64,000 nt of DNA from an uncultured Schlesneria sp. GTDB lineage: Bacteria > Planctomycetota > Planctomycetia > Planctomycetales > Planctomycetaceae. The notes beneath the pieces were generated by a model. The model worked only from the letters and a program-made list of their open reading frames with translations. It did no database searches and was not told the DNA's origin. A program made the position numbers and the translations under genes. This document shows, one piece after another, positions 10,083 through 23,450 of the stretch. The DNA lies in NCBI GenBank assembly GCA_903904835.1, contig CAIVEI010000088.1, forward strand, positions 1 through 64,000, in the 5' to 3' direction. Numbering within the stretch: position 1 is the first letter of the stretch; every line of letters begins with the position of its first letter.

Positions 10083-13025
10083 ATGCTGAATATTTTTCGA
10101 GCCTGGCTGAATTCGTTTCGAGTTTTGGCACCAGGTCGTCGAGTTCAATCTCGGCGTCGATCTGCATTCTCGTTCGTGGCAGATATTCAGGTTTTGGAAC
10201 CGCGCGCCCTGTTGTCAGCGTCGTTCCCGCAGTTCGTCGATCCACATCCTTCGACAGGCGACGGATTCGGGGCTCTCGTTGATCCCTTGAAGAATGGAAA
10301 TGTCATCGTCGTCGCTCCGGGTGATAACGCGGGTGGAACAAATGCAGGCGCCCTTTACCTGTTTAACGGATCAACCGGTGCCTTGATCAGCACCCTGCAT
10401 GGCAGCCATGCTGGTGATTTCAATTATTGCAATATCTACGATGTTGGAAACAACAACTTTATTCTGGTCGATCAAGCATGGAACAACGGCTTTGGTGCCG
10501 TAACATGGGGTAGCGGGACCACGGGAATCAACGGCACAATCAGTGCTTCAAACAGCTTGATTGGAAGCAGCACCAGCGATTACATCGGCGCAGGTGGAAT
10601 CACAGTCCTTCCCAATGGGAATTACCTGATCAACTCGTGCTACTGGGCGAACGGGACGGCAACGGATGCGGGGGCCGTGACGTGGGGAAGCGGGGCCACA
10701 GGCGTCAGCGGTACGATCAGTGCCTCGAACAGCCTGATTGGGACGAGCACCAGCGATTTCGTCGGAATCGGCGGAATCACCGTACTTCCCAATGGGAATT
10801 ACCTTGTCGACTCGTACAACTGGGCTAACGGAACGGCAACCAAAGCGGGTGCCGTGACCTTTGGAAATAGCGCGACCGGCGTGCATGGGGCTGTCAGCGC
10901 ATCGAACAGTCTCGTGGGTAGCTCAATCAACGACAGTGTCGGTGAATCCGGATACATTTTTGGCGGCATTCAACCGGGCATTTCACTCCCGACACCAGTC
11001 GCGGGCTTGCCGACCCCTAATATCGTGATCGGCCCGTGGTTCTACCCCTCAATCACGGTGCTGAAAAATGGCAATTACACCGTCAATAGCGAGAATTGGA
11101 ATCAACAGGCGGGTGCTGTGACATTCGGAAATAGCGCGACAGGAGTCGCGGGAGTTGTCAGCGCATCCAACAGTTTGATTGGTGATGCTAAGGGCGACAG
11201 GATTGGCGGATCAGGGGTCACGCCATTGACAAACGGAAACTACGTTGTCGTCAGTCCGGCATGGGCCAATGGAACTGCGGTCGGCGCAGGAGCGGTGACA
11301 TGGGGAAGCGGAACGACAGGGATTCATGGCTTTGTCAGCGTGACCAACAGCCTGGTGGGCTCGACCAAGGGCGATTCTGTCGGCCACGACGGAATCGTGG
11401 AATTGAAAAACGGTAACTATGTGATTGACAGCTCTGATTGGAACAACGGCGCGGCACTTGGTGCAGGAGCCGTCACGTTCAGCAACGGAAGGCGGGGCAT
11501 CACAGGCGTCGTCAGTTCCGCGAACAGTCTTGTCGGCAGTACAACGAACGATCATGTCGGCGGTCTGATACCATACCCATGGATCCTTACCCCGGCAGTC
11601 ACTTCAAACGCTCAAACCACATCATCCACCACGAACGGAGTGACATACGTCAATGGTTCCGGCATCGCCCTACTGGGTGACGGAAACTATCTTGTGGTCA
11701 GTCAGAGCTGGAATAATGGTGCTGCCACCGAGGCAGGCGCTGTGACCTGGGGGAGCGGTGTGATCGGCGCATCCGACGTCGTCAGTGCGGCGAATAGCCT
11801 GGTCGGCACGACGAAAGGTGATGAAGTTGGCAGCGGCGGAGTCGTCGGGGTTGGCAATGGAAATTTTGTTGTCATCAGTCCGAACTGGTCGAACGGATCA
11901 ATGGTCGATGCGGGAGCGGTGACGTTCGTCCGCGGCGAGCGTGGGTTCAAGGGGATCGTCAGTTCGAGCAACAGCCTTGTGGGAAGCTCGAACGGCGATT
12001 TCGTAGGCACCTCTGGAGTGGTCGTGCTGAGCAACGGCAATTACCTGGTTCGTAGTCCGTCGTGGGGCGCCGGGGCCTTCGAGACAGGTACCGTCTATCC
12101 ATGGACATCACTGGGGCTCGGTGCCGTGACGTGGGGCAGTGGAGCGACAGGGGTTCTCGGCGTATTGAGTGCCAGTAACAGTCTTGTCGGAAGTTCAAAG
12201 GGTGACTGGGTCGGAATTAGCTTTCCCACGATTCTTTCGAACGGAAATTACGTCGTCGAAACGAGTAGCTGGCACACTTACACAGGCGCGTCAACGTGGG
12301 GTGATGGAAGTAAAGGGGTTAGCGGTGTGATCAGCGCCTCAAACAGCCTCGTTGGAAGCTTGCCTGGTGACTCAATCGGCGGATTTTTTGGTTGTATTAG
12401 CTTGAGCAACGGAAACTATGTGTTACTAAGCCCTAATTGGAATCAGGGCGAAGGAGCCGCGACATGGGTTAATGGCAAAACAGGAATCGTTGGGACGATC
12501 AATGCAACCAATAGCCTTGTCGGCAGTTCGAAGGGTGATCAAGTCGGCAGTTGGTACACTCTACTAGCAAACGGAAATTATGTCATTAATAGCCCTTATT
12601 GGAATCGTAATGCAGGCGCAGTGACGTGGAACAGTAGTTCGCATGGTGTCGTGGGTGTGATTAGTGCCGCGAATAGTCTTATTGGAGGCACCGCCGGAGA
12701 TTTTGTCGGCGAATATCCAATTTACGCTCTACCGAACGGGAACTACGTCGTTGATAACCCGGTTTGGTCGAACAATCTGGGTGCCGCGACGTTTGGAAAT
12801 GGTACGAGTGGAGTCCATGGAATCGTCAGTTCGACAAATAGCCTCGTCGGCTCCACTGCCGGCGATTCTGTGGGAAGTAATGGAATCGACGTATTCAGTA
12901 ACAGCAATTACCTGGTCATGAGCCACAATTGGAGCCAGGTGAGCGGAAATCCAAACGGCAGTAGTGTGGTCACTCCCAACGTAGGTGCTGCCACGTTTGG
13001 CAATGGGTCGACGGGCGTCAGTTGA
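10083..13025 (+). CDS. N-terminal part of an interrupted LEPR-motif repeat surface protein
   Basis: 980 codons to the first stop. The N-terminus has a basic leader and VLEPRALLSA (about residues 37-46), the planctomycete surface-protein motif. Then come about fifteen degenerate repeats of 55-75 residues, each with GAVTWGSG.TG, a GTISASNSL.GSS..D..G core and LPNGNYLV..., likely a beta-propeller or beta-solenoid stack. The stop at 13023-13025 (TGA) falls exactly where the repeat expects Gly (GGA). Beyond it the repeat continues in frame (LITNANSFIGTG) to 13091, where a mobile element begins. The missing C-terminus is at 22971-23450. The gene is therefore broken twice: a nonsense codon and an insertion. 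Confidence 0.85.
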   Translation: MLNIFRAWLNSFRVLAPGRRVQSRRRSAFSFVADIQVLEPRALLSASFPQFVDPHPSTGDGFGALVDPLKNGNVIVVAPGDNAGGTNAGALYLFNGSTGALISTLHGSHAGDFNYCNIYDVGNNNFILVDQAWNNGFGAVTWGSGTTGINGTISASNSLIGSSTSDYIGAGGITVLPNGNYLINSCYWANGTATDAGAVTWGSGATGVSGTISASNSLIGTSTSDFVGIGGITVLPNGNYLVDSYNWANGTATKAGAVTFGNSATGVHGAVSASNSLVGSSINDSVGESGYIFGGIQPGISLPTPVAGLPTPNIVIGPWFYPSITVLKNGNYTVNSENWNQQAGAVTFGNSATGVAGVVSASNSLIGDAKGDRIGGSGVTPLTNGNYVVVSPAWANGTAVGAGAVTWGSGTTGIHGFVSVTNSLVGSTKGDSVGHDGIVELKNGNYVIDSSDWNNGAALGAGAVTFSNGRRGITGVVSSANSLVGSTTNDHVGGLIPYPWILTPAVTSNAQTTSSTTNGVTYVNGSGIALLGDGNYLVVSQSWNNGAATEAGAVTWGSGVIGASDVVSAANSLVGTTKGDEVGSGGVVGVGNGNFVVISPNWSNGSMVDAGAVTFVRGERGFKGIVSSSNSLVGSSNGDFVGTSGVVVLSNGNYLVRSPSWGAGAFETGTVYPWTSLGLGAVTWGSGATGVLGVLSASNSLVGSSKGDWVGISFPTILSNGNYVVETSSWHTYTGASTWGDGSKGVSGVISASNSLVGSLPGDSIGGFFGCISLSNGNYVLLSPNWNQGEGAATWVNGKTGIVGTINATNSLVGSSKGDQVGSWYTLLANGNYVINSPYWNRNAGAVTWNSSSHGVVGVISAANSLIGGTAGDFVGEYPIYALPNGNYVVDNPVWSNNLGAATFGNGTSGVHGIVSSTNSLVGSTAGDSVGSNGIDVFSNSNYLVMSHNWSQVSGNPNGSSVVTPNVGAATFGNGSTGVS

Positions 13026-13083
13026 TTGATCACTAACGCAAACAGTTTTATCGGGACAGGTTTACTTACGTACTCCTATTACT

Positions 13084-13091
13084 CACGCGTG
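13084..13091. repeat. Left copy of 8-bp target-site duplication
   Basis: CACGCGTG directly abuts the left inverted repeat and recurs at 22963-22970 directly after the right one. The sequence is itself a palindrome, so it could also be counted as an extension of the inverted repeats. In-frame restoration of the host gene supports the duplication reading. Confidence 0.8.
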
Positions 13092-13116
13092 GGTACTGGG
13101 TGAACTCTGTGTTGAT
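13092..13116 (+). repeat. Left terminal inverted repeat
   Basis: 25 bases starting GGTACTGGGTGAACTC, the perfect reverse complement of 22938-22962 and also of 22209-22233. The following bases are A-rich (GGAAAAAGT), resembling the A-run inside the right end. Confidence 0.85.
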
Positions 13117-13140
13117 GGAAAAAGTGGATACGTCGGCGAA

Positions 13141-13785
13141 TTAAGTGCTGGCTCTCCGTTCTAATTCGTTCTCAATCGCAAGCAGTCGCTCCGGCACAAG
13201 CGTCCATTTGGATTCGTCCATGCCGTGCCTCAGCATGGCTAAGCTTCCTTCGAACTGACTAGCCACCGCAAGAAAAAACTGCGAGGCTCCAGCATCTGGA
13301 TTGGTCGTATGGCGAATCATTGGCGTTTCATGGAACACGATATAATAAAAATCTTCGATCCGATCCAGAAAGCGATCTATATTGTCCGGCAGATGATCCG
13401 AACCCCTAAGCAACGTACACAGCTTGGTGACGTACTGTCTTATTTCCACAATACTCAATTCAGATGGTGGAATACGCGACTTGTATTTCTGGATCTCATT
13501 CAATTGATCGCGATGGACCTCGTACGGAGATTGAATCATGGCCCATCCATGCAATACAAACCACAGGGCTACGAGAATAGCGAGCGACCATACAGTTGCG
13601 ATTGCTCGATATTGATAGAACGTCTCAATCCCAACTCCAAAAACGACAAGCAGAGCGAGAATAAATGTCGCAATCGCTTCTGTGGCGACTTTCGCACGCC
13701 ATTTCCCGCCTTCGAGTTCAATGCCTTTGTTTCTTAGCATTTTGTAATATCCAAAGAGTGTCGGGCATTCATCCATTGGCGGCAT
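13141..13785 (-). CDS. Two-helix membrane protein of unknown function (element cargo)
   Basis: 214 residues from the ATG at 13785; a second in-frame ATG at 13776 has better spacing from AGGGA, and the frame is open to 13821, so the start is uncertain. Two adjacent transmembrane helices (VATEAIATFILALLVVFGVG and AIATVWSLAILVALWFVLHG, about residues 33-82) are followed by a soluble, charged, probably helical cytoplasmic domain. No family was recognised. The leader upstream has the ACTCCC...GTCAACTAGGGA pattern shared with other element genes. Its stop is only 25 bases from the left inverted repeat. Short two-helix proteins with a soluble tail are common effectors in mobile defence modules, but nothing here proves that role. 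Confidence 0.6.
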   Translation of the reverse strand: MPPMDECPTLFGYYKMLRNKGIELEGGKWRAKVATEAIATFILALLVVFGVGIETFYQYRAIATVWSLAILVALWFVLHGWAMIQSPYEVHRDQLNEIQKYKSRIPPSELSIVEIRQYVTKLCTLLRGSDHLPDNIDRFLDRIEDFYYIVFHETPMIRHTTNPDAGASQFFLAVASQFEGSLAMLRHGMDESKWTLVPERLLAIENELERRAST

Positions 13786-13862
13786 TTCCCTAGTTGACGG
13801 CGCACCGGGAGTTGCTACCATACCGATACGAATGGCACTAGGTTAAGGAAGTCACCCATGAA
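13786..13862. promoter_or_regulatory. Chimeric leader shared by two modules
   Basis: Read on the minus strand, the part next to the gene at 13785 matches the 3' half of the type-1 leader (ATGGTAGCAACTCCCGG...GTCAACTAGGGA). Read on the plus strand, the same interval matches the leader at 18082-18135 (GAATGGCACTAGG.TAAGGAA.TCACCCATGAATTA) but leads only to a 7-codon frame that collides with the end of the next gene. It looks like a recombination scar between two leaders. Confidence 0.55.
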
Positions 13863-14462
13863 TTACAGAGTTGTTCTTTGATTGTGAATTGCTGCATTGA
13901 CTGGAGTCGTGGGCGATGTCTGGTGTATTCGAAGGGCAATCAAAAGCAGCGTACCAAGAATGGACGACACATATCCAGCCGCCAGCCAATTTGATTTGGT
14001 GCTCAAGATCGATCTCGCTCCTACAATTGAGCAATGCAAATACGCCGACAATTGAGATCTCTGCTTGTCTTCATTGTAGTCGCATGACTCTAAAGCTTCG
14101 CGCGTAGTTAATGTTCCTGGCCAGTCTGATGGGAACAGCACCATCAGGGATGACATTACAGCCGCTGCAATCAACGCCAAGCTGACATTCAGCCATAGTC
14201 CTTGCGACACATTGGATGCGAGAACAGTTGTGGCAGTCAGCGCGAACACAATAACGCCAGCGGCTTTCTTTTCGAGAATCTCTCGCTGATCCCCAAGTTG
14301 TGAATATTTGTCTCTCGCCATATCGTAAATCGCTTGAGACTTTACGTTTTCATGGGACCGAACTTCATCAAAGAACTTCACAGCCCACTTTTCCGCCTCG
14401 ATGTATGCGGGGTCTGTGTCGTACCTGCGATAAATCAATTGGAACCATTGATCGAATCTCAT
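13863..14462 (-). CDS. Three-helix membrane protein of unknown function (element cargo)
   Basis: 199 residues. A soluble helical N-terminus (about 1-65; YDMARDKYSQLGDQREILEKKAAG) precedes hydrophobic helices at about 67-83 (GVIVFALTATTVLA), 90-112 (WLNVSLALIAAAVMSSLMVLF) and 158-180 (WLAAGYVSSILGTLLLIALRI). A charged amphipathic segment running into the first helix resembles several mobile-defence membrane effectors (SLATT/Pycsar-like), but the similarity is only of layout. Its ATG overlaps the stop of the 36-codon gene upstream (ATGA), so the two are translationally coupled. Confidence 0.6.
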   Translation of the reverse strand: MRFDQWFQLIYRRYDTDPAYIEAEKWAVKFFDEVRSHENVKSQAIYDMARDKYSQLGDQREILEKKAAGVIVFALTATTVLASNVSQGLWLNVSLALIAAAVMSSLMVLFPSDWPGTLTTREALESCDYNEDKQRSQLSAYLHCSIVGARSILSTKSNWLAAGYVSSILGTLLLIALRIHQTSPTTPVNAAIHNQRTTL

Positions 14463-14569
14463 TTGTCATCCCTTTTCGAATATCGATCTCTTGCGTCGGC
14501 CTTTTTCGGGGCCTGTTTCTTAGCGATAACTTTTTTCGTTTGCGGTGCAGTAGTTTTCTTTTTTGGCAT
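14459..14569 (-). CDS. 36-residue Lys/Arg-rich peptide, coupled to the membrane gene
   Basis: A small basic protein beginning MPKKKTTAPQTKKVIAKK and ending SKRDDK; 14 of 36 residues are Lys or Arg. Its ATG lies seven bases after GGGAGTT of a complete type-1 leader and its TGA overlaps the ATG of the next gene. Position, ribosome site and coupling make it a real gene. It resembles nucleic-acid-binding histone-like tails in composition only. It could be the regulated leader cistron for the membrane protein. Confidence 0.6.
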   Translation of the reverse strand: MPKKKTTAPQTKKVIAKKQAPKKADARDRYSKRDDK

Positions 14570-14707
14570 CACAGTAACTCCCAATTGACTACGAACCGGG
14601 AGTCGTTACCATACTGTCAGCACGACTGTATGGTTCTCTCCCGAGACCAAAGAAACAAAAGAACGCCAGCAATTTCCGTTGCTGGCGTTTCTATTTTCCA
14701 CGATTCA
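14570..14707 (-). promoter_or_regulatory. Type-1 leader module, copy A
   Basis: On the minus strand: a bidirectional hairpin (ACGCCAGCAA/TTGCTGGCGT, with T-rich flanks), then GGGAG (14638-14642) and ACCATAC paired with GTATGGT and CTCCC, then AGTCAATTGGGAGT and the ATG at 14569. The 3' arm ACTCCC (plus strand 14598-14603) can pair either with the upstream GGGAG or with the ribosome site GGGAGT (plus strand 14577-14582). That makes two exclusive folds, one exposing and one hiding the ribosome site. Copies C and D share the same layout. Confidence 0.65.
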
Positions 14708-14731
14708 GGTTTAACTGCAATGCGAGTGTGA

Positions 14732-16117
14732 TCACACTTTCGTTTTTGCCGTTTTTGCGTTCAGTTTTCGGCGGTAAGAATTCCGTGGCTTGGTCATCAT
14801 TTCTCGCCAGCCTGAACGACGCTTCTTGAGTCGAGGCTCAACCCGTCCAGGACGATTGGCAACGCGATGAGTTGAAACGGTAATCAACATCGCGTCGTAC
14901 AGCACATCGCCAACATCCGTGACCATCATTGCGGGTGTGAAGGATTCGATCGCTTGCATGGCACCTTTGACACTCAACTGTCGTGGCATGAGTCCAGTCC
15001 TCTTCGCCGATTCAGTCATCGTTCCACGCAACAGATTGTAGGCAAGCAGATGAGCGAAGATTTCCTTTCTCGCCATGTCGGGCGTCTTAGCACGAAGAAC
15101 ATCCAGATGCATGCTTTGCTTGATCGACCGAATATCCAGTTCGCAATTCCACCTTCTCCAATAAAGTTCAGAGATTTCGTTTTGCGGAACGGTTGGATCG
15201 GTGATCGTGGTAACGACGATGGCTTGTTCCGTGCCTCCCTCACGACTTTCAATATCTATTACGAACTCCCGTACCTGGATCGTGTCGGGGAATGCTCGGA
15301 ATTCTTCGTCACTGATCCCCGGTGGCCGTGTTGGTTTCTGCCACTCGACGATATGGTCCATTTCGCCAAGCTGAATACCCTCGCTGAAATCGATTTTGCG
15401 TGAAGCATTGCTGATTGAAACCAGTTGAACACCATGAGGAATCAATGCCGACAGTGTTCGGTAGCTGGGGTAGTACCGATCGGCAACAAGGATGTCCCCG
15501 TGATTCATCGTGTCGAGCATTCCGCGAAGCAAAGCACCTTCGCCAGTTCCCTTTCCTTCGTATGGGCCACATTTGAAATCGACAACCGAGCCAGTTGAAA
15601 GAGAGATCAACGCGACTGCCCGCATGATTGGAAACCCAAGTCCGGGGGCGACAGTTTTGATCTGAGGAAACTCCAATTGATTTTCAGGTGTGTCGGGCAT
15701 TGAAAGAGTGGTTCCGTCCGCAAGGAAGACTTCGTGTTCTCGCCAGTGCCAGGAATCAGAAGCATTATTGTGAACGTTTCTTCCGATTTCCTTTGCAAGT
15801 CGAGACAACACCGGCAAAGGAAACCTTATACGGGCGTCGGAATAGCTTGCGGATGATGCAGAGCAAGCTGGAAGCCCGCTCGCCACACGGAAGGCTAAGA
15901 TTCGCGATACTGCCTCATTAAGTGACTTATCTTGGCTCAATGACTGACTCAGCCATGCCCACAACGTGACCAGTGGGCAGAAGACTCGTTGACGGTACTT
16001 GTGTCCTTCGTCTTCAAGAACGCCCAATACATGGTCGCGGGTCAGGATTCGACCGAATGGAAGACCGCTGTCGTTCGCAAAGGTATCTCTAACGACGTCA
16101 AAGTTTTTTCTTGGCAT
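14732..16117 (-). CDS. IS4-family transposase
   Basis: 461 residues, full length for the family. The DDE residues are visible: first Asp in FLADGTTLSMPD, second in ILVADRYYPSY, and Glu in the YREK signature YWRRWNCELDIRSIKQ (Y-x2-R-x3-E-x6-K). The N-terminus has the usual helical domain and the C-terminus is strongly basic (RKLNAKTAKTKV). AAAAGGGTGA is the ribosome site. No IS-type inverted repeats hug this gene; instead it has the same upstream module as the IS1-type gene at 18959. It therefore looks like cargo placed in a standard cassette rather than an independent insertion sequence. It may still be active. Confidence 0.9.
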   Translation of the reverse strand: MPRKNFDVVRDTFANDSGLPFGRILTRDHVLGVLEDEGHKYRQRVFCPLVTLWAWLSQSLSQDKSLNEAVSRILAFRVASGLPACSASSASYSDARIRFPLPVLSRLAKEIGRNVHNNASDSWHWREHEVFLADGTTLSMPDTPENQLEFPQIKTVAPGLGFPIMRAVALISLSTGSVVDFKCGPYEGKGTGEGALLRGMLDTMNHGDILVADRYYPSYRTLSALIPHGVQLVSISNASRKIDFSEGIQLGEMDHIVEWQKPTRPPGISDEEFRAFPDTIQVREFVIDIESREGGTEQAIVVTTITDPTVPQNEISELYWRRWNCELDIRSIKQSMHLDVLRAKTPDMARKEIFAHLLAYNLLRGTMTESAKRTGLMPRQLSVKGAMQAIESFTPAMMVTDVGDVLYDAMLITVSTHRVANRPGRVEPRLKKRRSGWREMMTKPRNSYRRKLNAKTAKTKV

Positions 16118-16408
16118 GAATTCACCCTTTTGATTTGGGCGAATCGCGGTAGAATGTTGTTGCGATACAGGGCATTCTGGCGACTCGCTGGACTGAACTG
16201 GGCCTCGATTGGGTTAGCGTCTGGTCGAGGCTTTTTCGTTTCGTCAGGATTAGCGTCCCGACACAGTTTTAAACGGATTTAATCCTTGTCGGATCATGAT
16301 TTATGCATAAATTTATGGATATTTACTCAAATCGATGACGACAAATCTCCTGTCATTCGACGACCAGTAAAGCATACGAAGTGAGATTGATTCTCGACTT
16401 GCTTCGCC
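16118..16408 (-). promoter_or_regulatory. Type-2 leader module before the IS4-type transposase
   Basis: On the minus strand this 290-base block aligns throughout with 18671-18958, which precedes the IS1-type transposase. It contains GTCGGGACG, a stem at 16203-16230 (CCTCGA/TCGAGG followed on the plus strand by CTTTTT), then AGAATG paired with CATTCT. The final GATTCGCCC can pair with GGGTGAATTC, which holds the ribosome site. The plus-strand terminator would stop transcription leaving the transposase region. Confidence 0.65.
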
Positions 16409-16507
16409 CTAAGATATGCCGTCGATCAGCAGTCCGGTCATCGACCGAAACTGCCGACGCGAAAGCCACTGAAAGAACCAATAGACGTACTTCGATCCGT
16501 AGAGCAT
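16409..16507 (-). CDS. 32-residue conserved peptide upstream of transposase, copy 1
   Basis: The peptide begins MLYGSKYVYWFFQ and ends GLLIDGIS. A second copy at 18572-18670 is identical at 26 of 32 positions although the surrounding DNA has diverged. Both have GAAGGG ribosome sites 6-7 bases before the ATG. An aromatic N-terminal half followed by SRRQFRSMTG suggests a membrane-interacting basic peptide. Each copy lies about 290 bases upstream of a different transposase. Confidence 0.6.
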   Translation of the reverse strand: MLYGSKYVYWFFQWLSRRQFRSMTGLLIDGIS

Positions 16508-16589
16508 TATCTGCCCTTCATGTTGTGCTTAACGTGTGACGTAACTTCCAGGAAACACACACGAAAGCGGGTTTAGGGGCTTTTAATTG

Positions 16590-16631
16590 AACCAGCCATC
16601 AGCCCCGTGTTGATGACTGGTTCTTCTTTTT
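16590..16631 (+). terminator. Intrinsic terminator
   Basis: Stem AACCAG.CATCA with TGATG.CTGGTT, followed by TTCTTCTTTTT. Confidence 0.65.
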
Positions 16632-16653
16632 GATGAACTCCAAAGACGAAAAA

Positions 16654-16686
16654 AGCCGACTCACCACGATTGGCGGTCGGCTCGTT
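16654..16686. terminator. Bidirectional terminator
   Basis: AGCCGAC/GTCGGCT stem; followed by CGTTTTC on the plus strand and by TTTTTTCGTC on the minus strand. On the minus strand it can end transcripts of the gene at 16882-17397. Confidence 0.65.
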
Positions 16687-16881
16687 TTCACGTTACCGGA
16701 ATGTCAACGAAAAAGCCGTCCAAAAGCTACCACACTCTCAGGACGGCTCATTTCGCAAACCTTGCGGTTCATGTTCTCAATTTGAGTGAGAGTGTGGTGC
16801 GAGAACGTTACGAGCTTTCAAAATCACAGTCAATGCGGTTTTCGTATCGCGATTACATTTTTCGTCAACCGCAACAGGTAA

Positions 16882-17397
16882 TCAACCAACAAGCCTTTTG
16901 CTAATGACAAACCCAACTAACCCAAAAATCGGCCCGAGCAGAGCCATATGACCGGGGACAAGGTTGTACCGAGCCTCGCTGTATGGTCGGCCAAGTAGCA
17001 TCAAGCCACCAAACAATGCGAAATGATGGGCGGCATAAAATCCGACGCAACATCCGGCTGCGATCCCAAGCAATGTCGAAAGCACAACAATCGACCGTCG
17101 CGTTTCATCATTTTTCGCTGGCGGCTTGTTAACCATCTTCGGGATGTCTTCCGAAATGATTGGCGTAAAAACAAGATTTTCGTCGGCTTGCGGTTCTGCC
17201 TCTTCCTTGCTGACAATCGGCTTTTCGTCGTCAAATAAGCCTGGTACTCGGGATGCTTGAAACCAAATCGAGTTCGCTGATCGGCGAATGCCGGTCGATC
17301 GAGTGATGCGACCAGAAACGGCGAGTTTCTTGAGAGTGGCATCATCAATGTTTGCGTGAATCTTTCCGTTGTGGTTCACTTCCCAATTGTTGCTCAT
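16882..17397 (-). CDS. GYF_2 (DUF4339)-type membrane protein (element cargo)
   Basis: 171 residues. Residues 1-55 form a GYF_2-type module: NWEVNHNGKIHANIDDATLK, then KLAVSGRIT, IWFQASRVPGLF. These modules usually precede membrane domains and bind partners. An acidic linker follows, then two hydrophobic helices (IVVLSTLLGIAAGCCVGFYA, about 107-126; MALLGPIFGLVGFVISKRL, about 150-168). The second GYF_2 membrane protein of the element is at 20705-21388. Function is unknown. Confidence 0.65.
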   Translation of the reverse strand: MSNNWEVNHNGKIHANIDDATLKKLAVSGRITRSTGIRRSANSIWFQASRVPGLFDDEKPIVSKEEAEPQADENLVFTPIISEDIPKMVNKPPAKNDETRRSIVVLSTLLGIAAGCCVGFYAAHHFALFGGLMLLGRPYSEARYNLVPGHMALLGPIFGLVGFVISKRLVG

Positions 17398-17526
17398 TTG
17401 ATTGGTCTTCAGCCTGCGGAAGAAAGTCGAAACACTCCGATCGATTATTTACGAACGTATGCTTAAGTGCCACTGTTGGGCGAATAACTGATCCATGATT
17501 GCAGTTTTGTGATTGCGTCGGACAAT

Positions 17527-17563
17527 GACAAACGCCATGAACTGGCTGTTCATGGCGTTTGTC
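17527..17563. repeat. Perfect 16-bp inverted repeat upstream of the Cas2/SinR-like gene
   Basis: GACAAACGCCATGAAC (17527-17542) and its exact complement at 17548-17563 with a 5-base loop TGGCT. It lies 39 bases before the ATG at 17603. It may be a protein or RNA-processing target, or part of a leader. No T-run follows, so it is not a simple terminator. Confidence 0.6.
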
Positions 17564-17602
17564 GAGAATCGGTCATTATTCTTGCTGATGAAGGAACTTC
17601 TG

Positions 17603-17878
17603 ATGACTGCCTACCTGATTGACATCGATATGGCTCGTGCCACAAATCCGGAACTCGTTTTGGATATTATCAGACGACTTCCAACCAGCTTTCCTGGACC
17701 AAAATCAACATGGATTGTCGAGACAGATCAATCAGCACAGCAGGTGTTCGATACTCTTTCGCCTTACTTTGCGGAAAATTCCGGTTTGCTCATCTGTGAG
17801 ATTTGCGGGAGCTTGGTTTGGGACGCATCTGATGAGTCCATCAAGCGATGGCTTTCGGCCCGAATAATCGGCGGGTAA
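17603..17878 (+). CDS. Cas2/SinR-like ferredoxin-fold protein (element cargo)
   Basis: 91 residues from the ATG at 17603, which follows GAAGGA by eight bases; the frame extends to 17513 but runs through the inverted repeat. It starts TAYLIDIDMA and contains STWIVETDQSAQQVFDTL and SGLLICEICGSLVWD, the pattern of small SinR/Cas2-like proteins (first strand with Asp, then STWIV.T..SA). Such proteins are small nucleases or nuclease-related toxins, but catalysis cannot be judged here. No cas genes or repeats accompany it. Confidence 0.55.
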   Translation: MTAYLIDIDMARATNPELVLDIIRRLPTSFPGPKSTWIVETDQSAQQVFDTLSPYFAENSGLLICEICGSLVWDASDESIKRWLSARIIGG

Positions 17879-17988
17879 TAGCGGTTCGACTTAAACGGTG
17901 TACTGCCTTCGATCACGGTGTCGTTGACAAGCTCGTAGGGGATTTCCTGAATATACACGACTGTTCCGGCTGGCGCGGTCTGTTGCAT
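17764..17988 (-). CDS. Possible small protein overlapping the Cas2-like gene
   Basis: 74 codons with an AAAGGA ribosome site eight bases before the ATG. The first half (QQTAPAGTVVYIQEIPYELV) lies outside the overlap and looks protein-like, but the last 115 bases are antisense to the gene ending at 17878. It lies downstream of the leader at 18082-18209. It may be real and shortened by convergence. Confidence 0.3.
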   Translation of the reverse strand: MQQTAPAGTVVYIQEIPYELVNDTVIEGSTPFKSNRYYPPIIRAESHRLMDSSDASQTKLPQISQMSKPEFSAK

Positions 17989-18015
17989 GACATCAATCCT
18001 TTGATAAATCCGTAA

Positions 18016-18081
18016 TCAAAAACGACAGATTATCACCGGATTCAATTTTGGAAACAATCCCTGTTTTTGCCTATAATTCAT
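18016..18081 (-). CDS. 21-codon leader ORF
   Basis: Starts MNYRQKQGLF after AAGGAATTCACCC. The same start context (CACCCATGAATTA) occurs at 13852-13864 with a 7-codon frame. It could be a leader peptide controlling the frame at 17988, or the remains of a lost gene. Confidence 0.35.
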   Translation of the reverse strand: MNYRQKQGLFPKLNPVIICRF

Positions 18082-18209
18082 GGGTGAATTCCTTATCCTA
18101 GTGCCATTCCCATACCGATACCACTCCGTATGGTTCTCCCAGCGAGAACATGAAACAAAAGAACGCCCGCCATGATCTGACGGGCGTTTTCTATTTTCCA
18201 TGATTCACA
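18082..18209 (-). promoter_or_regulatory. Leader module, copy F
   Basis: On the minus strand: AACGCCCG/CGGGCGTT hairpin with T-rich flank, TTCTTTTGTTTC, GTTCTC, then GGGAGAACCATAC with a downstream GTATGG, AAGGAATTCACCC and ATG. The first 80 bases match copies A and C closely; the end next to the ATG matches 13815-13862 instead. It is a hybrid of the two patterns. Confidence 0.55.
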
Positions 18210-18320
18210 AAAAAACACAATGGAAACGTATTGACTGTGATTTTGAAAGACCTTAATGTTCCGCCACTACGTCCTGGAAACTAATTGACGATCCAATAAG
18301 CCGCAAGACTTGCGAACGAA

Positions 18321-18361
18321 AGCCGTCCTCCAGGCGTAGTAACTTTAGGGACGGCTTTTTT
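18321..18361 (+). terminator. Intrinsic terminator
   Basis: AGCCGTCC (18321-18328) pairs with GGACGGCT (18349-18356), followed by a T-run. Confidence 0.7.
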
Positions 18362-18390
18362 CGTCTCTATATTTTGGCAACGTGAAAACG

Positions 18391-18423
18391 AGCCGCACGC
18401 CCGATGGGTGATGCGGCTTTTTT
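18391..18423 (+). terminator. Intrinsic terminator
   Basis: AGCCGCA (18391-18397) pairs with TGCGGCT (18412-18418), running into TTTTTT. Confidence 0.7.
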
Positions 18424-18571
18424 CGTCTTTGGAGTTCAGCAAAAGAAAAAACTCGCACCGACACGGGGCCGATGCGAGTTCTCATTGTTAGCCCCGAAAT
18501 TAACTCAAGCAAGGGATCAAAAGTTCTTGGCAGGACTTCCCAAGCAAGAGCACAAAAAGGAAGGGCATAAA

Positions 18572-18670
18572 ATGCCTGAAGGATCGCGGTACGTCTATTG
18601 GTTCTTTCAGTCTCTATCTCGTCGGCAGTTTCGGTCGATGACCGGACTGCTTGTCGACTGCATATCCTAA
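18572..18670 (+). CDS. 32-residue conserved peptide upstream of transposase, copy 2
   Basis: Starts MPEGSRYVYWFFQ and ends GLLVDCIS; 26 of 32 residues match the copy at 16409-16507. GGAAGGG lies six bases before the ATG. In the leader CTTCC can pair with GGAAG of the ribosome site. Conservation of the frame between two otherwise drifting copies argues for translation. Confidence 0.6.
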   Translation: MPEGSRYVYWFFQSLSRRQFRSMTGLLVDCIS

Positions 18671-18958
18671 TGCCAAGTCGACCCTGAAGCAATCTCGTTT
18701 CCCATTCTTCACGGATCACCGCATAGCGGGCTGTTTTGTCGTTAACGATTTATGGAAATAGCCATAATTTTACGGCAAAACCATGATCTAATAACGCTGG
18801 CGTGCGTTTACATATATGTCGGGACGCCAATCCTGACAAAACAAAAAACCTCAGTCAGACGCCAATCCAACTGAGGCCCAGAACATCTGGCGAACCAGAA
18901 TGCACCGTGTAGCAACGTCATTCTAGCTCGGTTCGCCAAAGAAAAAAGGCGATTCGAA
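18671..18958 (+). promoter_or_regulatory. Type-2 leader module before the IS1-type transposase
   Basis: Inverted counterpart of 16118-16408. CCTCAG (18849-18854) pairs with CTGAGG (18871-18876), giving a terminator with T6 on the minus strand. Then TGGCGAACC-AGAATG (18888-18902) pairs with CATTCT (18919-18924) and GGTTCGCCA (18930-18938). TCGCC of that arm can alternatively pair with GGCGA (18948-18952) at the ribosome site of the transposase. Confidence 0.65.
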
Positions 18959-19924
18959 ATGAAATGCGTTCATTGTGGAAATGGCGGCGCGGCGAAGTTT
19001 GGAAAAGATCGTAATGGCCAACAGCGGTTTCGCTGCCTGTCCTGCAAAAAGACTTTCGTCGAACCTCATGCTTTGGCCGGAAAGCAAACCGATATGAAAG
19101 TTGCCGTCCAGGCGTTGAACATGCTGCTGGAAGGGATGTCAGTGCGGTCAACATCACGATTGACCGGACTGGACAAGAACACGATCCTCGGCCTGATGGT
19201 TCAGGCTGGCGAATCCTGCCAGCGGTTTATGGAACGGGCGATTCAGGGCCGAACTGTGAACGCCATCGAATGCGACGAACAATGGGCGTTTGTGGGATGC
19301 AAACGAAAGACTCAGGAGTTGCTTGAGCTTGATCCAGAGTTGCAGGGAGATCGATACGTCTTCACGGCCATCGACCGTGATTCGAAGTTGCTGCTCTGCT
19401 GGCACAGTGGCCAGCGTTCGCCAGAAAGCACTTGGAAGTTTGCCGACAAGTTGCGGGCGTCGGTTGCTGGTTGCCCAACGATCAACACTGACGGGTTCAA
19501 CAGCTATACCTTCATCATTCCCTTCACTTTCGACAACCAGTGCAACTACGCTCAAGTCATCAAGCATTTCCAGAACTCAAGCGGTCGATCTGCTGCAACT
19601 CGCTATTCCCCAGGATCTATAATATCTGCCGAAAAACGGATCATCTGCGGTGATGTCGCGATTGCGGAAATCGGAACATCACGGATGGAGAGATTCAACT
19701 TAACAACTCGAATGCAGGTTCGCCGATTCACCAGATTGACGAACGCTCATTCGAAGAAGACTCGGAACCATGACGCGATGCTTGGCCTGTACTTCGCTTG
19801 GTACAACTGGTGCCGACATCACTCGACCATCAAGACCACCCCAGCAGTCGAGGCTGGATTGGCGACTGAGAAATGGTCGATCGAAAGACTGCTGGATGAA
19901 GCCGCGAAAGTCACTGCGACATAA
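18959..19924 (+). CDS. IS1-family transposase, single-frame type
   Basis: 321 residues. The N-terminal zinc finger (Cys3, Cys6 and Cys25, Cys28 in MKCVHCG and FRCLSCKKTF) precedes a helix-turn-helix (GMSVRSTSRLTGLDKNTI) and an IS1-type DDE domain: Asp in AIECDEQWAFVGCK, Asp in NTDGFNSYTF and Glu in SRMERFNLTTRM. Classical IS1 needs a frameshift between two ORFs; here it is one frame, as in many planctomycete and archaeal relatives. The GGT-starting ends and 8-bp duplication of the whole element fit this family. Directly followed by a strong terminator at 19937-19979. Confidence 0.88.
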   Translation: MKCVHCGNGGAAKFGKDRNGQQRFRCLSCKKTFVEPHALAGKQTDMKVAVQALNMLLEGMSVRSTSRLTGLDKNTILGLMVQAGESCQRFMERAIQGRTVNAIECDEQWAFVGCKRKTQELLELDPELQGDRYVFTAIDRDSKLLLCWHSGQRSPESTWKFADKLRASVAGCPTINTDGFNSYTFIIPFTFDNQCNYAQVIKHFQNSSGRSAATRYSPGSIISAEKRIICGDVAIAEIGTSRMERFNLTTRMQVRRFTRLTNAHSKKTRNHDAMLGLYFAWYNWCRHHSTIKTTPAVEAGLATEKWSIERLLDEAAKVTAT

Positions 19925-19936
19925 ATAGAGAAAAGC

Positions 19937-19979
19937 CCACAAGCCCGAATGCATATTGCATTCGGGCTTTTTTTGTGGT
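19937..19979. terminator. Strong intrinsic terminator
   Basis: AAGCCCGAATGCA (19941-19953) pairs with TGCATTCGGGCTT (19957-19969), three-base loop, then T7. Outer CCACA/TGTGG extends the stem. Confidence 0.85.
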
Positions 19980-20020
19980 AACCAAAGAGAGTCCAGGCGG
20001 TTTAGAAGGTTAATATTGAA

Positions 20021-20224
20021 ATGAACGCGAATCTTTCCGCAAGCAGTGTCAACGGGGACTCACGCTTAGCGACCGGCGGGAAGGCGCTTAAAGTCAAAAC
20101 TATCGACTATCATTTGTCAGCCGACAAAAAGACGTTCAAGGCGAATTGGGTTTATGACGTCGTGGATCAACCTTGTCCAGAAAGCTCTGATGGCAAATCA
20201 CCAATCTCGCATGTACATACATGA
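20021..20224 (+). CDS. Possible 67-residue protein
   Basis: Starts after GAAGG (short spacing). Sequence such as KALKVKTIDYHLSADKKTFK looks protein-like and hydrophilic. The last 58 bases overlap the opposite-strand frame ending at 20167, so at most one of the two is certain. No family recognised. Confidence 0.3.
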   Translation: MNANLSASSVNGDSRLATGGKALKVKTIDYHLSADKKTFKANWVYDVVDQPCPESSDGKSPISHVHT

Positions 20225-20442
20225 AGCTTAGTGCCTTCCGATGAGTTTCCGCTCTTGTGGGCCTGTTGTTGAGCCGCCATCATGCCAAGGGCGGCCTGAA
20301 ACGCAGATAGTGTTGAGTCTTTTTCTTCCGGTTGCTCGTGGCAAATCCACGTCCTCTCTTTTGCGTCTGTAACGAAAAACGATCCGTCTTCCGTCAGTGC
20401 GACATTGTCAACATCTCCGCGATAGCAACGGAACATAGGCAT
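20167..20442 (-). CDS. 91-residue hypothetical protein (element cargo)
   Basis: Begins MPMFRCYRGDVDNVALTEDG with a strong GAAGGAAG ribosome site. It contains FFVTDAKERTWICHE, a Gln/Ala-rich helix (ALGMMAAQQQAHKSG) and CTCEIGD. No family is recognised. A terminator-like hairpin (ACCGCCC...GGGCGGT then T7) stands between the probable promoter and the gene, so attenuation is possible. Confidence 0.5.
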   Translation of the reverse strand: MPMFRCYRGDVDNVALTEDGSFFVTDAKERTWICHEQPEEKDSTLSAFQAALGMMAAQQQAHKSGNSSEGTKLHVCTCEIGDLPSELSGQG

Positions 20443-20704
20443 AACCGCTTCCTTCTTTTTTTGCGATCCGCCATAAAACGAAAAAAACCGCCCCGTTCGT
20501 TGTCCAGACGAAAACGTAGGGCGGTCTCTTCGCCAACGGCGAATAAGCGAATTGTACGGCTGTCGTTCGTCTGGACAAGACCGTTCTACCGTTCAACTTT
20601 ACCGGCGACAAGTTACGTCACTCACTTGAACAGGTGAGAGTCACTTCGGTAGTCTTTTGGTCTTCTCGTGTGATTGTCTCTTTTCTAGGCCGAAAGACAT
20701 TCCA
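20443..20704. promoter_or_regulatory. Divergent leader region with nested hairpins
   Basis: TGTCCAGACGAA (20501-20512) and TTCGTCTGGACA (20566-20577) form a 12-bp arm around TTCGCCAACGGCGAA. Overlapping ACCGCCCC...AGGGCGGT is a terminator on the minus strand. Towards 20705, CTACCG...CGGTAG encloses CTCAC-TTGAACAG-GTGAG. These serve the genes starting at 20442 (minus) and 20705 (plus). Confidence 0.5.
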
Positions 20705-21388
20705 ATGGCGACTGAATGGTTCTATTCCAATGATGGAAAGCAATTCGGTCCAGTTTCTTCGACTGAGTTGAAGCAGTTGTCCGCAACTGGAGAAATAAAC
20801 GCCGATACGTTGGTCTGGAAAGAGGGGCTGAAGAACTGGGCGCGTGCGGCAGCAGTGAAGGGGTTGTGTTCCGCGTCCCCTCCACCATTGCCCATCAGAC
20901 GCCAAACTCAGCAACTTCTTGAGAACCTTTTCGGACGACCCAAAAGCCATGCTGCCGATGAAGAAAAAGACAACGCGACGGAACAGCACGAAATTGTAAT
21001 TCCAGCGAGGCGGATTCGTTCTGAGGAAGAAGAAATTCGAATCGCTAACGTCTATCGGAGCGCGGCAAACTGTAATCGATCAACTGGCAAGTTCCTGTAC
21101 ACGATATCGTTCTTTTGTGTTTTTATATTACTGATTTTCTTTGTAGTTCTGATTAAAAACAAAGACTTACCAATTTCTGAACAATTGGCGAACTTCGGAA
21201 GGACGTTCGCTTTTCTGCTGATCATGGCCGTGATTACGATGGCCTATTGTCTGCCGACAATAATCGCCGCATTCAAGCTTAGGTCATGGAAGATGATTTT
21301 TGCGTTGAATATCGCAGCCGCATGGACGGGATTTGGATGGCTGGCCTTAATGGGGTATGTGGTGTTTGTTCCTGGTGATACAGAGTAA
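20705..21388 (+). CDS. GYF_2 plus superinfection-immunity-like membrane protein (element cargo)
   Basis: 227 residues from the ATG at 20705. Residues 1-55 are a GYF_2 domain (EWFYSNDGKQFGPVSSTELK, QLSATGEIN, LVWKEGLKNW). A charged linker follows, then three hydrophobic helices, the last two reading MAYCLPTIIAAFKLRSW and IFALNIAAAWTGFGWLALMG. The LPTIIA...LN...WTG.GW pattern is that of the Imm_superinfect family, named for the phage T4 Imm protein that blocks DNA entry of a second phage. In bacteria the domain is often just a small membrane module, so an antiphage role is plausible but unproven. A type-1 leader module for the next gene begins soon after its stop. Confidence 0.65.
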   Translation: MATEWFYSNDGKQFGPVSSTELKQLSATGEINADTLVWKEGLKNWARAAAVKGLCSASPPPLPIRRQTQQLLENLFGRPKSHAADEEKDNATEQHEIVIPARRIRSEEEEIRIANVYRSAANCNRSTGKFLYTISFFCVFILLIFFVVLIKNKDLPISEQLANFGRTFAFLLIMAVITMAYCLPTIIAAFKLRSWKMIFALNIAAAWTGFGWLALMGYVVFVPGDTE

Positions 21389-21419
21389 TCCTTGTCAGCA
21401 CGCAATTGCAGTGTGGCAG

Positions 21420-21557
21420 TGAATCGCAGAAAATAGAAATCGCCAGCAACGGAAATTGCTGGCGATTCTTCGTTTTGTGTTCTCATGGGGAGAACCATGC
21501 CGCTATGGTAACAGCATGGTAACGCCTCCCCATTCACAGTCAATTGGGAGTTGCGAT
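21420..21557 (+). promoter_or_regulatory. Type-1 leader module, copy C
   Basis: Same order as copy A: GAAAATAGAAA, hairpin ATCGCCAGCAA/TTGCTGGCGAT, T-rich spacer, GTTCTC, ATGGGGAG (21485-21492) pairing with CTCCCCAT (21526-21533), inner ACCATGC/GCATGGT, and AGTCAATTGGGAGT (21538-21551). CTCCC (21526-21530) can instead pair with the ribosome site GGGAG (21546-21550). Confidence 0.7.
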
Positions 21558-21749
21558 ATGACGGACAGAGCCGAAAGAGAAGCAGAGCTTTTACAAATGG
21601 CAAAAAGCGAACAGGGGAAGCACACAATAATAGCGACTCGCCGCGAAATTAAGTTAAACAACCAAAGCATGCGGGAAACGAAGGGGATGCAATTGGGGGA
21701 AATGATCGTCGAAATTTTGAATCACGAGTTTCCACCTGCTGGCAAGTGA
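21558..21749 (+). CDS. 63-residue small charged protein (element cargo)
   Basis: Begins MTDRAEREAELLQMAKSE and ends NHEFPPAGK; mostly helical and charged, no membrane segment. Translated from the GGGAG site of leader copy C. The last 28 bases overlap the convergent gene ending at 21722. No family recognised; size and composition suit an antitoxin or regulatory peptide, but that is speculation. Confidence 0.55.
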   Translation: MTDRAEREAELLQMAKSEQGKHTIIATRREIKLNNQSMRETKGMQLGEMIVEILNHEFPPAGK

Positions 21750-22015
21750 GGGAGCGTCTTTTCCTCTTCCATTATCACTCGGACGCCCAGTTTGGCGGTT
21801 GGGTCTTGGATCGCGAAGAAATTGTAATATTGATCGCTATCTAGAAAACACACCGTCTCAATCCATACTCGCTCACCTTTCGGAACTGGAGTTCCGAACT
21901 CATCATAGTGAGTCGCCCACTTGACCTGTCCTTGAGCTTCTCGACGAGAAGGAAAACCTGACAACAATGAAAATGGAAGCAACAATAAAGACTTCAGAAA
22001 TTCGATTCGTGACAT
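21722..22015 (-). CDS. 97-residue exported protein (element cargo)
   Basis: MSRIEFLKSLLLLPFSLLSG is a clear signal peptide or anchor, followed by a small soluble domain (WATHYDEFGTPVPKGERVW, YNFFAIQDPTAKLGVRV). AAGGGA stands eight bases before the ATG. A terminator-like hairpin at 22041-22067 lies in its leader. Unknown function. Confidence 0.55.
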   Translation of the reverse strand: MSRIEFLKSLLLLPFSLLSGFPSRREAQGQVKWATHYDEFGTPVPKGERVWIETVCFLDSDQYYNFFAIQDPTAKLGVRVIMEEEKTLPHLPAGGNS

Positions 22016-22040
22016 GTTTCAGCGTCCCTTAAAACGAAAA

Positions 22041-22072
22041 AGCCCGGTCTGACATCTGCCAGACCGGACTTT
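22041..22072. terminator. Hairpin terminator or attenuator
   Basis: CCGGTCTG (22044-22051) pairs with CAGACCGG (22060-22067). On the minus strand it is followed by TTTTTCGTTTT and then by the ribosome site of the gene at 22015, so it could attenuate that gene. Confidence 0.6.
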
Positions 22073-22154
22073 GCATCACTCAGAGTTCTCACACACCAAG
22101 CCATGCAAATGTACGGTTCTTCTGCGATGGGTGTGTGAGTCGGGAGATTGTGCG

Positions 22155-22208
22155 ATGCTCGATTTCAGAAGTCAATATGAGTCCGTACAATCAAAGCGAG
22201 TTCATGGC
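22155..22208 (+). pseudogene. Gene start cut off by the internal terminal-repeat copy
   Basis: ATG at 22155 follows CGGGAG by about 8 bases and a leader stem (CTCACACACC...GGGTGTGTGAG, 22089-22136). After 18 codons the frame runs into the repeat copy at 22209-22233 and stops at 22271. The original gene has been lost. Confidence 0.45.
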
Positions 22209-22233
22209 ATCAACACAGAGTTCACCCAGTACC
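22209..22233 (-). repeat. Internal third copy of the terminal repeat
   Basis: A perfect 25-base match to the right end (22938-22962), same orientation. The type-1 leader D starts at the very next base and lacks its upstream hairpin, so the repeat marks a junction. It may be an older right end of the element. Confidence 0.85.
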
Positions 22234-22308
22234 TGGGAGCGAACCATGCAGCGTCAATGTCAGCATGGTAACGACTCCCGGTTCTTAGTCAATTGGGAGT
22301 CTTCAATA
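22234..22308 (+). promoter_or_regulatory. Type-1 leader module, copy D (5'-truncated)
   Basis: GGGAG (22235-22239) pairs with CTCCC (22275-22279), inner ACCATGC (22243-22249) with GCATGGT (22263-22269). GACTCCC (22273-22279) alternatively forms a perfect 7-bp stem with GGGAGTC (22295-22301), which contains the ribosome site of the gene at 22309. Best example of the two-fold design. Confidence 0.7.
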
Positions 22309-22620
22309 ATGAAGTACGAATTTCCGTGGCCGATGTGGATTATTTTTTACAAGGAACAGCAAGGAACGCGATTCGTCTTTCTAGAAGAGAAAGGCAAAGG
22401 CACGTTGGGAATCGCACTGTTCAAAGAGAAACTACTCGCCGAGAGATACAGGGATGGATGTCATCCGAAAGCGTCTATAGGGCCGATTACTGACATCGAA
22501 ATGCTGAGGCGCAATGTCGTTATTTTCAAGCAATATACGGAGGCAACGCACGTCGCGATTGATCATGAAGAATCAAAACCACAAACAGTTGCAATCTGGG
22601 TCCGACTCGAAGATATTTAG
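22309..22620 (+). CDS. 103-residue hypothetical protein (element cargo)
   Basis: Begins MKYEFPWPMWIIFYKEQQG, followed by FVFLEEKGKGTLGIALFKEK and a charged second half ending IWVRLEDI. Looks like a small soluble alpha/beta protein; no family recognised. The ATG is placed by the type-1 leader D (GGGAG). Upstream in-frame codons run through the leader and repeat and are not coding. Confidence 0.6.
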   Translation: MKYEFPWPMWIIFYKEQQGTRFVFLEEKGKGTLGIALFKEKLLAERYRDGCHPKASIGPITDIEMLRRNVVIFKQYTEATHVAIDHEESKPQTVAIWVRLEDI

Positions 22621-22937
22621 CGATGCGTACGAAGCCATAGCAATCAGCACTGGCAGAACAGCCTTTTGCCCGGTTGACATAACTTTCGCCACGCTGGAAA
22701 CATCGGACAATTCGTGTTCATCCACAACTTCATTGACGCCCTTTAAGCCGATAGTTGTACCATGCCAGTGGATCGAGGGTCCGCTGGAGGTTATTCCACA
22801 GACGAATCACGCCGATGGCCATAACCGGATCGGCTTGTCAAGCGGCGTGTCGATTATCGACGAGCATGATCTGCACAACTCGCCACCGGGTCCAATCGGT
22901 GGCGAGCAGCTTTCAATCACATAGGTCGAGTTTTTTT
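22621..22937. other. Non-coding tail of the element
   Basis: No convincing gene. A 10-bp hairpin with an 8-base loop at 22879-22906 (CTCGCCACCG/CGGTGGCGAG) is the only clear structure; it may end transcripts before the right inverted repeat. Confidence 0.45.
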
Positions 22938-22962
22938 ATCAACACAGAGTTCACCCAGTACC
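22938..22962 (-). repeat. Right terminal inverted repeat
   Basis: 25 bases ending CCCAGTACC, perfect complement of 13092-13116, preceded by a T7 run and followed by the CACGCGTG duplication. Confidence 0.85.
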
Positions 22963-22970
22963 CACGCGTG
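22963..22970. repeat. Right copy of 8-bp target-site duplication
   Basis: CACGCGTG, identical to 13084-13091. Host coding resumes in frame at 22971. Confidence 0.8.
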
Positions 22971-23450
22971 ACAATTGATAACGCAGCTCAAACCTTTGCT
23001 GTGGCATTTGGAGAACAGGGACCAATCTTTGTTGGTTCGCAAATCACGGGAATTCCTGCACCAAAATTGACGCTCTTCGCTGTTGATCCTTCCTCGCTGA
23101 AGTACACCAGAAGCAGCGGTGCAACCGCGGTCGCTCCCACAATCCAAATCGCGAATAACTCGGGGAACTTGCTGTCTGCCAAGATCCAGATCTCGGGCAA
23201 CTATCAGAACGGTCAGGACCTGCTGGCATTTACGGATACCTCAACGATCAAAGGGAGTTGGAACGCATTGACGGGGACCCTGACTTTGACCGGTCAGGGA
23301 ACTGCGGCTGACTACGCCGCTGCAATGGCGTCGGTGACCTACCAAAATCTCAGTAAGACTCCAAATCGGTTGACTCGTACGGTGACCTTCTCAACCACGG
23401 ACGGCCAGAATGTCAGTAATACTGTTACACGAATGATGTCATTCAGTTGA
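22971..23450 (+). pseudogene. Severed C-terminus of the repeat surface protein
   Basis: 159 codons beginning TIDNAAQTFAVAFGEQG, without its own start. The sequence (LTLTGQGTAADYAAAMASVT followed by RTVTFSTTDGQN) is the beta-sandwich end module typical of planctomycete giant surface proteins. Read directly after 13091 it continues the frame of the gene at 10083, giving a parent of about 1160 residues if the TGA at 13023 is read as Gly. Confidence 0.85.

What the first reader, a model, noticed from the sequence alone, without database searches (positions are those of the whole stretch)
22209..22962. Third perfect copy of the terminal repeat inside the right side
Seen: 22209-22233 equals the right end exactly, and a leader deprived of its 5' hairpin begins at the next base. 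A gene starting at 22155 is cut at the same point. Inference: an earlier right end was extended by a unit of 729 bp, possibly by one-ended transposition or recombination at repeats, showing how cassettes are added.
Basis: partly seen in the sequence, partly recalled or inferred. Interest (0 to 1): 0.6.

Follow-up and report, generated by a model that had tools for sequence, protein, structure and literature searches.

The report
Transposon with a third, internal end
A bacterial jumping gene of the IS1 family in a planctomycete carries a perfect extra copy of its own end about 700 bases inside its right border; two relatives stop exactly at that inner copy, so the element appears to have grown by taking on one more gene cassette that came with its own end.

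Summary
Window 22209-22233 is a perfect, same-orientation third copy of the 25-bp terminal repeat of a 9,871-bp IS1-family transposon (13092-22962, 8-bp target duplication CACGCGTG). The inner copy is an older right end. A Schlesneria genome (G144) and a phage-like IMG/VR contig match the window inward from this repeat (84% and 91%), and both leave into unrelated DNA at exactly base 22233. The added unit (22234-22962) is a terminal cassette: a leader fragment, a 103-aa gene, an overlapping 118-aa reading frame, and the repeat. Six other leader copies keep the 5' hairpin lost here, so the junction is derived. One sub-claim fails: no gene starting at 22155 is cut. That stretch is the conserved promoter and leader of the minus-strand gene 21722-22015.

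Best explanation, inferred: two related elements fused, by insertion of one into the other or by an adjacent deletion. The composite then moved using the outer right end, as shown by target duplication and restored host frame. One-ended transposition into ordinary host DNA fits less well. The layout matches Tn1721/Tn1722, an unrelated Tn3-family transposon with three ends. It is a new variant of a known kind, of moderate interest.

The parts
13084..13091 (.). left copy of 8-bp target duplication CACGCGTG
   Evidence: same 8 bp at 22963-22970
13092..13116 (+). left terminal inverted repeat GGTACTGGGTGAACTCTGTGTTGAT
13141..13821 (-). left-end passenger ORF (226 aa; true start probably near 13785, after the leader)
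   Evidence: no Pfam or NCBIfam match
13830..18109 (-). nested IS4-family transposon with 39-nt ends (92% complementary), inserted in the leader of the left cassette
   Evidence: I9; 12-bp duplication CCATACCGATAC at 13818-13829 and 18110-18121
14732..16117 (-). IS4-family transposase
   Evidence: NF033592, E=1e-58
14576..14707 (-). full-length cassette leader inside the IS4 transposon (comparison copy)
18959..19924 (+). IS1-family transposase (321 aa), presumed to move the whole element
   Evidence: NF033558, 101.2 bits vs cut-off 100; PF03400
20705..21388 (+). passenger gene with GYF_2 domain
21420..21552 (+). full-length cassette leader with 5' hairpin, ahead of a 63-aa ORF (21558-21749)
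21722..22015 (-). 97-aa gene at the older right end, conserved in L153
   Evidence: 17 synonymous and 13 nonsynonymous codon changes; changes by codon position 11/4/18
22039..22175 (-). promoter-like TTGACT-17-CACAAT and hairpin leader of the 97-aa gene, conserved between the window, L153 and, as far as its contig reaches, G144
22209..22233 (-). internal third copy of the terminal repeat = older right end
   Evidence: relatives end here
22234..22962 (+). added unit of 729 bp (cassette plus outer repeat)
   Evidence: absent from all relatives searched apart from leader and 103-aa gene homology
22235..22300 (+). cassette leader lacking its 5' hairpin
22309..22620 (+). 103-aa passenger gene
   Evidence: homologues in G146, G141, G142 at 29-36% identity
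22568..22924 (+). overlapping 118-aa ORF ending 13 bp before the outer repeat
   Evidence: open frame only; no homologue in 170 genomes
22938..22962 (-). outer right terminal repeat, the end used in the last transposition
22963..22970 (.). right copy of target duplication CACGCGTG
10083..23450 (+). host gene split by the element; removing 13092-22970 joins the two halves in frame (one TGA remains just upstream of the site)

Best explanation
This is an IS1-family transposon with one left end and two right ends. Shown: an element ending at 22233 existed (two relatives end there), and the copy in the window last moved as 13092-22962, using the outer right end. Shown: the extra unit begins inside a cassette leader whose 5' hairpin is missing and ends with another terminal repeat. 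Inferred: a second, related element (B) carrying the 103-aa cassette next to its own end lay beside or around the first (A). A inserted into B's cassette leader, or a deletion running from A's right end cut into that leader. Transposase then paired A's left repeat with B's outer repeat, so A plus the end cassette of B became one larger transposon. Because all three repeats are identical, either 13092-22233 or 13092-22962 should be able to move.
For: Third perfect repeat, essentially unique to this element in its genome. G144 C93 matches 22082-22233 at 84% and then enters an unrelated gene with a sigma-70 region 4 domain. L153 matches 21747-22233 at 91% and then enters unrelated DNA. In the three-way alignment identity begins at the first base of the repeat. 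Outer ends carry the 8-bp duplication and the host frame is restored. Full leaders precede cassettes elsewhere, including a homologue of the 103-aa gene in G146. The last ORF ends 13 bp before the outer repeat, as expected of a natural element end. Insertion beside or into such elements is seen directly: an IS4 transposon nested here, and in L120 a related element sitting 8 bp from a solo right end.
Against: No B element with this exact cassette next to a matching terminal repeat was found. The two routes (nested insertion and adjacent deletion) cannot be told apart from the product. None of the other intact elements surveyed has a comparable internal end, so the event is rare. A misassembly at a 25-bp repeat cannot be excluded without reads, although it is unlikely.
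Confidence: 0.62

Rival explanations
1. One-ended or read-through transposition: transposase skipped the inner right end and used a chance or resident repeat-like sequence 704 bp downstream in flanking DNA.
For: The inner repeat is intact and was bypassed in the last move.
Against: The downstream DNA is element-type DNA: a leader of the family found only at cassettes (6 sites in 3 of 170 genomes), a passenger gene, and a perfect 25/25 repeat. Chance host flank would not give these.
Confidence: 0.1
2. Homologous or site-specific recombination between 25-bp repeats of two elements, or integration of a circle made of cassette plus repeat, duplicated the repeat around the new unit.
For: The inner and outer repeats are identical over 25 bp, and such recombination leaves a repeat on each side of the gain.
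Against: The leader is truncated exactly at the repeat edge, so a donor already carrying that truncated junction is needed. 25 bp is short for homologous recombination. No recombinase gene is seen in the element.
Confidence: 0.17
3. The inner repeat is an ancient fixed part of the element and G144 and L153 are shorter derivatives that used the inner end.
For: Use of an inner end could give the shorter forms seen.
Against: The truncated leader next to the inner repeat is the derived state (six other copies have the hairpin). No relative has the unit.
Confidence: 0.06
4. Assembly artefact joining two elements at the shared repeat.
For: The G144 contigs break in or near such elements, so they are hard to assemble.
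Against: 25 bp is shorter than usual read or k-mer lengths. The outer duplication and restored frame show that left end and outer right end belong to one insertion.
Confidence: 0.05

Closest known systems
Tn1721/Tn1722 (Tn3 family)
   Same: One left and two right terminal repeats in the same orientation; a basic transposon plus an extension ending in a second right repeat; both lengths can move (PMC5756416, PMC5736529).
   Different: Different transposase family (Tn3; 38-bp repeats, 5-bp duplication). Its extension keeps a partial copy of the transposase gene and carries tet genes; here the extension has no transposase remnant and carries a small unknown cassette.
IS1 family insertion sequences
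   Same: The transposase matches the IS1 models of NCBIfam and Pfam; repeat begins GGT; 8-bp target duplication.
   Different: Classical IS1 is about 0.77 kb with two frameshifted ORFs and no cargo (own knowledge). This group has a single-ORF transposase and carries passenger genes; intact copies found here are 2.2-9.9 kb.
Composite transposons and IS adjacent deletions (for example IS150, PMC11708052)
   Same: Fusion of an IS end to distant DNA at a precise edge.
   Different: Here the fused DNA itself ends in a matching terminal repeat, so the product is a single-unit transposon.

Membership tests
IS1 family | Transposase matches the IS1 family model above cut-off | tested here: met
   NF033558, 101.2 bits vs cut-off 100; PF03400, 33.3 vs 24.1
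IS1 family | Terminal inverted repeats of about 20-35 bp with GG at the tips | tested here: met
   25-bp perfect repeats; intact relatives begin GGTA, GGTG or GGCA
IS1 family | 8-9 bp target duplication | tested here: met
   CACGCGTG here and 8-bp duplications in relatives
IS1 family | Active transposition by the encoded enzyme | not testable with these tools
   needs a mobility assay
Tn1721-type three-ended transposon (works like) | Third repeat in the same orientation as the right end, relatives ending at the inner repeat | tested here: met
Tn1721-type three-ended transposon (works like) | Extension contains a remnant of a second transposase gene | tested here: not met
   no transposase similarity in 22234-22962
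Tn1721 / Tn3 family membership | Tn3-type transposase and resolvase | tested here: not met
   transposase is IS1 type; no Tn3 match among the element's proteins scanned

The most novel reading that the evidence does not exclude
These planctomycete IS1-type elements grow by adding ready-made terminal modules (leader, gene(s), terminal repeat) to either end. At the right the old end survives as the internal repeat. At the left, the DNA that directly follows the repeat in G144 C141 (AAAAAAAC...TATTGACTGTGATTTTG) now lies at 18207-18243, behind a leader-gene-repeat module, and the old repeat is gone.
Probability: 0.25. Interest if true: 0.62.

Novelty: new variant of a known kind. Interest (0 to 1): 0.45.

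Why it matters
How insertion sequences gain and stack passenger genes is usually inferred after the intermediates are gone. Here one intermediate junction is preserved and relatives with the older end exist, so the step can be placed in order and tested. It suggests that IS1-type elements can gain cargo by the route long proposed for Tn1721, and the right end is also found on a phage-like contig that could carry such cassettes between hosts.

Tried and rejected
Twenty TIR-pattern hits in genome contigs included 18 contigs of Candidatus Parabeggiatoa; the six examined are CTCTGTG-type repeats and none of the 20 loci has an IS1-type transposase nearby, so they are unrelated. Rfam found no curated match for the leaders. 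No relative carries the 22234-22962 unit as such; only the leader and a distant 103-aa homologue were found. The 22155 'gene' was rejected. A target-duplication match between the two G144 ends (C141 left, C93 right) was looked for by eye and not found, so they are probably two insertions. Tandem repeat copies in L115 are a 19-bp slip, not a nested end. My first rejoined leader kept 12 bp of IS4 and was corrected.

Full report
Setting. The window lies in a planctomycete genome (G000, 8.18 Mb, 211 contigs). A genome of the same genus, G144, is titled uncultured Schlesneria sp. in public records: contigs of the same lengths with the repeat at the same positions are CAIOKO010000093 and CAIOKO010000141.

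The element. An IS1-family transposon spans 13092-22962 (9,871 bp). Its ends are perfect 25-bp inverted repeats flanked by the 8-bp duplication CACGCGTG. Removing it with one copy of the duplication joins the two halves of ORF 10083-23450 in frame; one TGA remains just upstream of the insertion site. The transposase at 18959-19924 passes the NCBIfam IS1 model narrowly (101.2 against 100 bits) and the Pfam IS1 model. An IS4-family transposon (13830-18109, 12-bp duplication CCATACCGATAC) is nested in the leader of the left cassette.

The observation. 22209-22233 is a third exact copy in the orientation of the right end. Genome-wide only one other site lies within 3 mismatches, at C11:62270-62294, and the reversed control gives none. 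That site is the right end of a damaged second element carrying a DNA methyltransferase gene and a gene with a weak BglII-like endonuclease match.

The inner copy is an older end. Searches of the genus gave G144 contig C93, whose first 141 bases match window 22082-22233 at 84% and then run into a gene with a sigma-70 region 4 domain. A pattern scan of IMG/VR gave one contig (L153 / G170, 103 kb) whose repeat is exact. Going inward it matches window 21747-22233 at 91%; outward it is unrelated. In the three-way alignment the match starts at the first base of the repeat and the flanks differ. The refuting case (all relatives carry the same internal repeat) is not met: none of the other intact related elements with target duplications (2.2-5.1 kb, TIR starting GGTA, GGTG or GGCA) nor the other relatives examined has the unit or a comparable internal end.

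What was cut and what was not. The supposed gene at 22155 is not a gene cut by the repeat. In G144 its start codon is absent and an 11-bp gap breaks the frame. The same bases hold a promoter-like TTGACT-17-CACAAT on the minus strand, conserved in all three sequences, and a terminator-like hairpin present in the window and L153. These precede the 97-aa minus-strand gene 21722-22015. In L153 that gene differs by 17 synonymous and 13 nonsynonymous codons, with changes by codon position 11, 4 and 18, which fits a coding sequence. So the older right end is complete: gene, leader, promoter, repeat.

What was added. Unit 22234-22962 starts in the middle of a cassette leader. Six other leader copies (three in the window, two in G146, one in G144) keep an upstream terminator hairpin and the 5' arm GTTCTC or similar; here only the 3' arm remains. 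Behind it are a 103-aa gene, with homologues in G146, G141 and G142 (29-36% identity; in G146 behind a full leader), and an overlapping 118-aa frame that ends 13 bp before the outer repeat. The leader occurs at only six strong sites in three of 170 family genomes; in the loci examined each precedes a gene, often in or next to a transposon. The unit therefore looks like the end of another such element rather than host DNA. The outer repeat's inner neighbour (ATAAAAAAACTCGA) resembles the left end in G144 C141 (ATAAAAAAACTGGA) more than the inner right end does. This would fit a donor lying in the opposite orientation, but it is short and A-rich and I give it little weight.

Mechanism. I infer fusion of two related elements, by insertion of one into the other's cassette leader or by a deletion from the first element's right end into it, followed by transposition using the outer repeat. 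The last step is shown by the target duplication. Insertions into and beside such elements are directly visible: the nested IS4 element, and L120, where an element sits exactly 8 bp from a solo right end. One-ended transposition is not excluded but does not explain why the captured DNA carries the family's leader and a perfect repeat.

Comparison. Tn1721 has the same plan: a basic transposon Tn1722, then an extension closed by a second right repeat, with both lengths mobile, thought to come from two copies and a deletion (PMC5756416, PMC5736529). The present element works like that but is not a member, because its transposase is of the IS1 type and its extension has no transposase remnant. I found no held paper describing this layout in the IS1 family, but the library is incomplete.

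Noticed in passing
13830-18109: IS4-family transposon nested in the IS1-type element, with a 12-bp target duplication inside a cassette leader; it carries its own cassettes with the same leader type.
   Followed up: partly
16126-16840 and 18224-18949: About 720 bp of homologous leader (71%) precede two unrelated transposases, IS4 type and IS1 type, in opposite orientations. Shared regulatory leaders across transposon families are unusual.
   Followed up: no
21420-21552, 14576-14707, 18122-18215 with 13789-13829, 22235-22300: Conserved structured leader (terminator hairpin, GTTCTC/GAGAAC hairpin, ACCATNC/GNATGGT stem, ACTCCC/GGGAGT stem) ahead of different passenger genes; no Rfam match. Candidate cis-regulatory RNA restricted to this genus among 170 genomes.
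   Followed up: partly
L021:9801-12295 (G000 C11): Second, damaged copy of the element: truncated IS1 transposase, DNA methyltransferase, weak BglII-like endonuclease match, and a right end with 2 mismatches; no left end found.
   Followed up: partly
L153, L159, L160 (IMGVR_UViG_3300010885_050982): Phage-like contig carries the older right end of this element joined to part of the IS1 transposase leader, without a transposase; short pieces of that leader recur elsewhere on the contig.
   Followed up: partly
L120:7596-7641: In another planctomycete a related element sits exactly one 8-bp duplication away from a solo right end of the same family.
   Followed up: partly
L144:11759-16208 (G146 C71): Cassettes homologous to those of the window lie beside a third transposase type (SWIM zinc finger plus DDE_Tnp_1), with a terminator similar to the one after the IS1 transposase.
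   Followed up: no
18202-18243 compared with L076:3788-3860: The sequence directly inside the left repeat of a G144 element lies 5 kb inside the window element, suggesting that a cassette was also added at the left end.
   Followed up: partly
L086-L089, L091-L103, L105: Candidatus Parabeggiatoa genomes contain many CTCTGTG-type repeats that match the TIR pattern; six were inspected, none is near an IS1-type transposase.
   Followed up: partly
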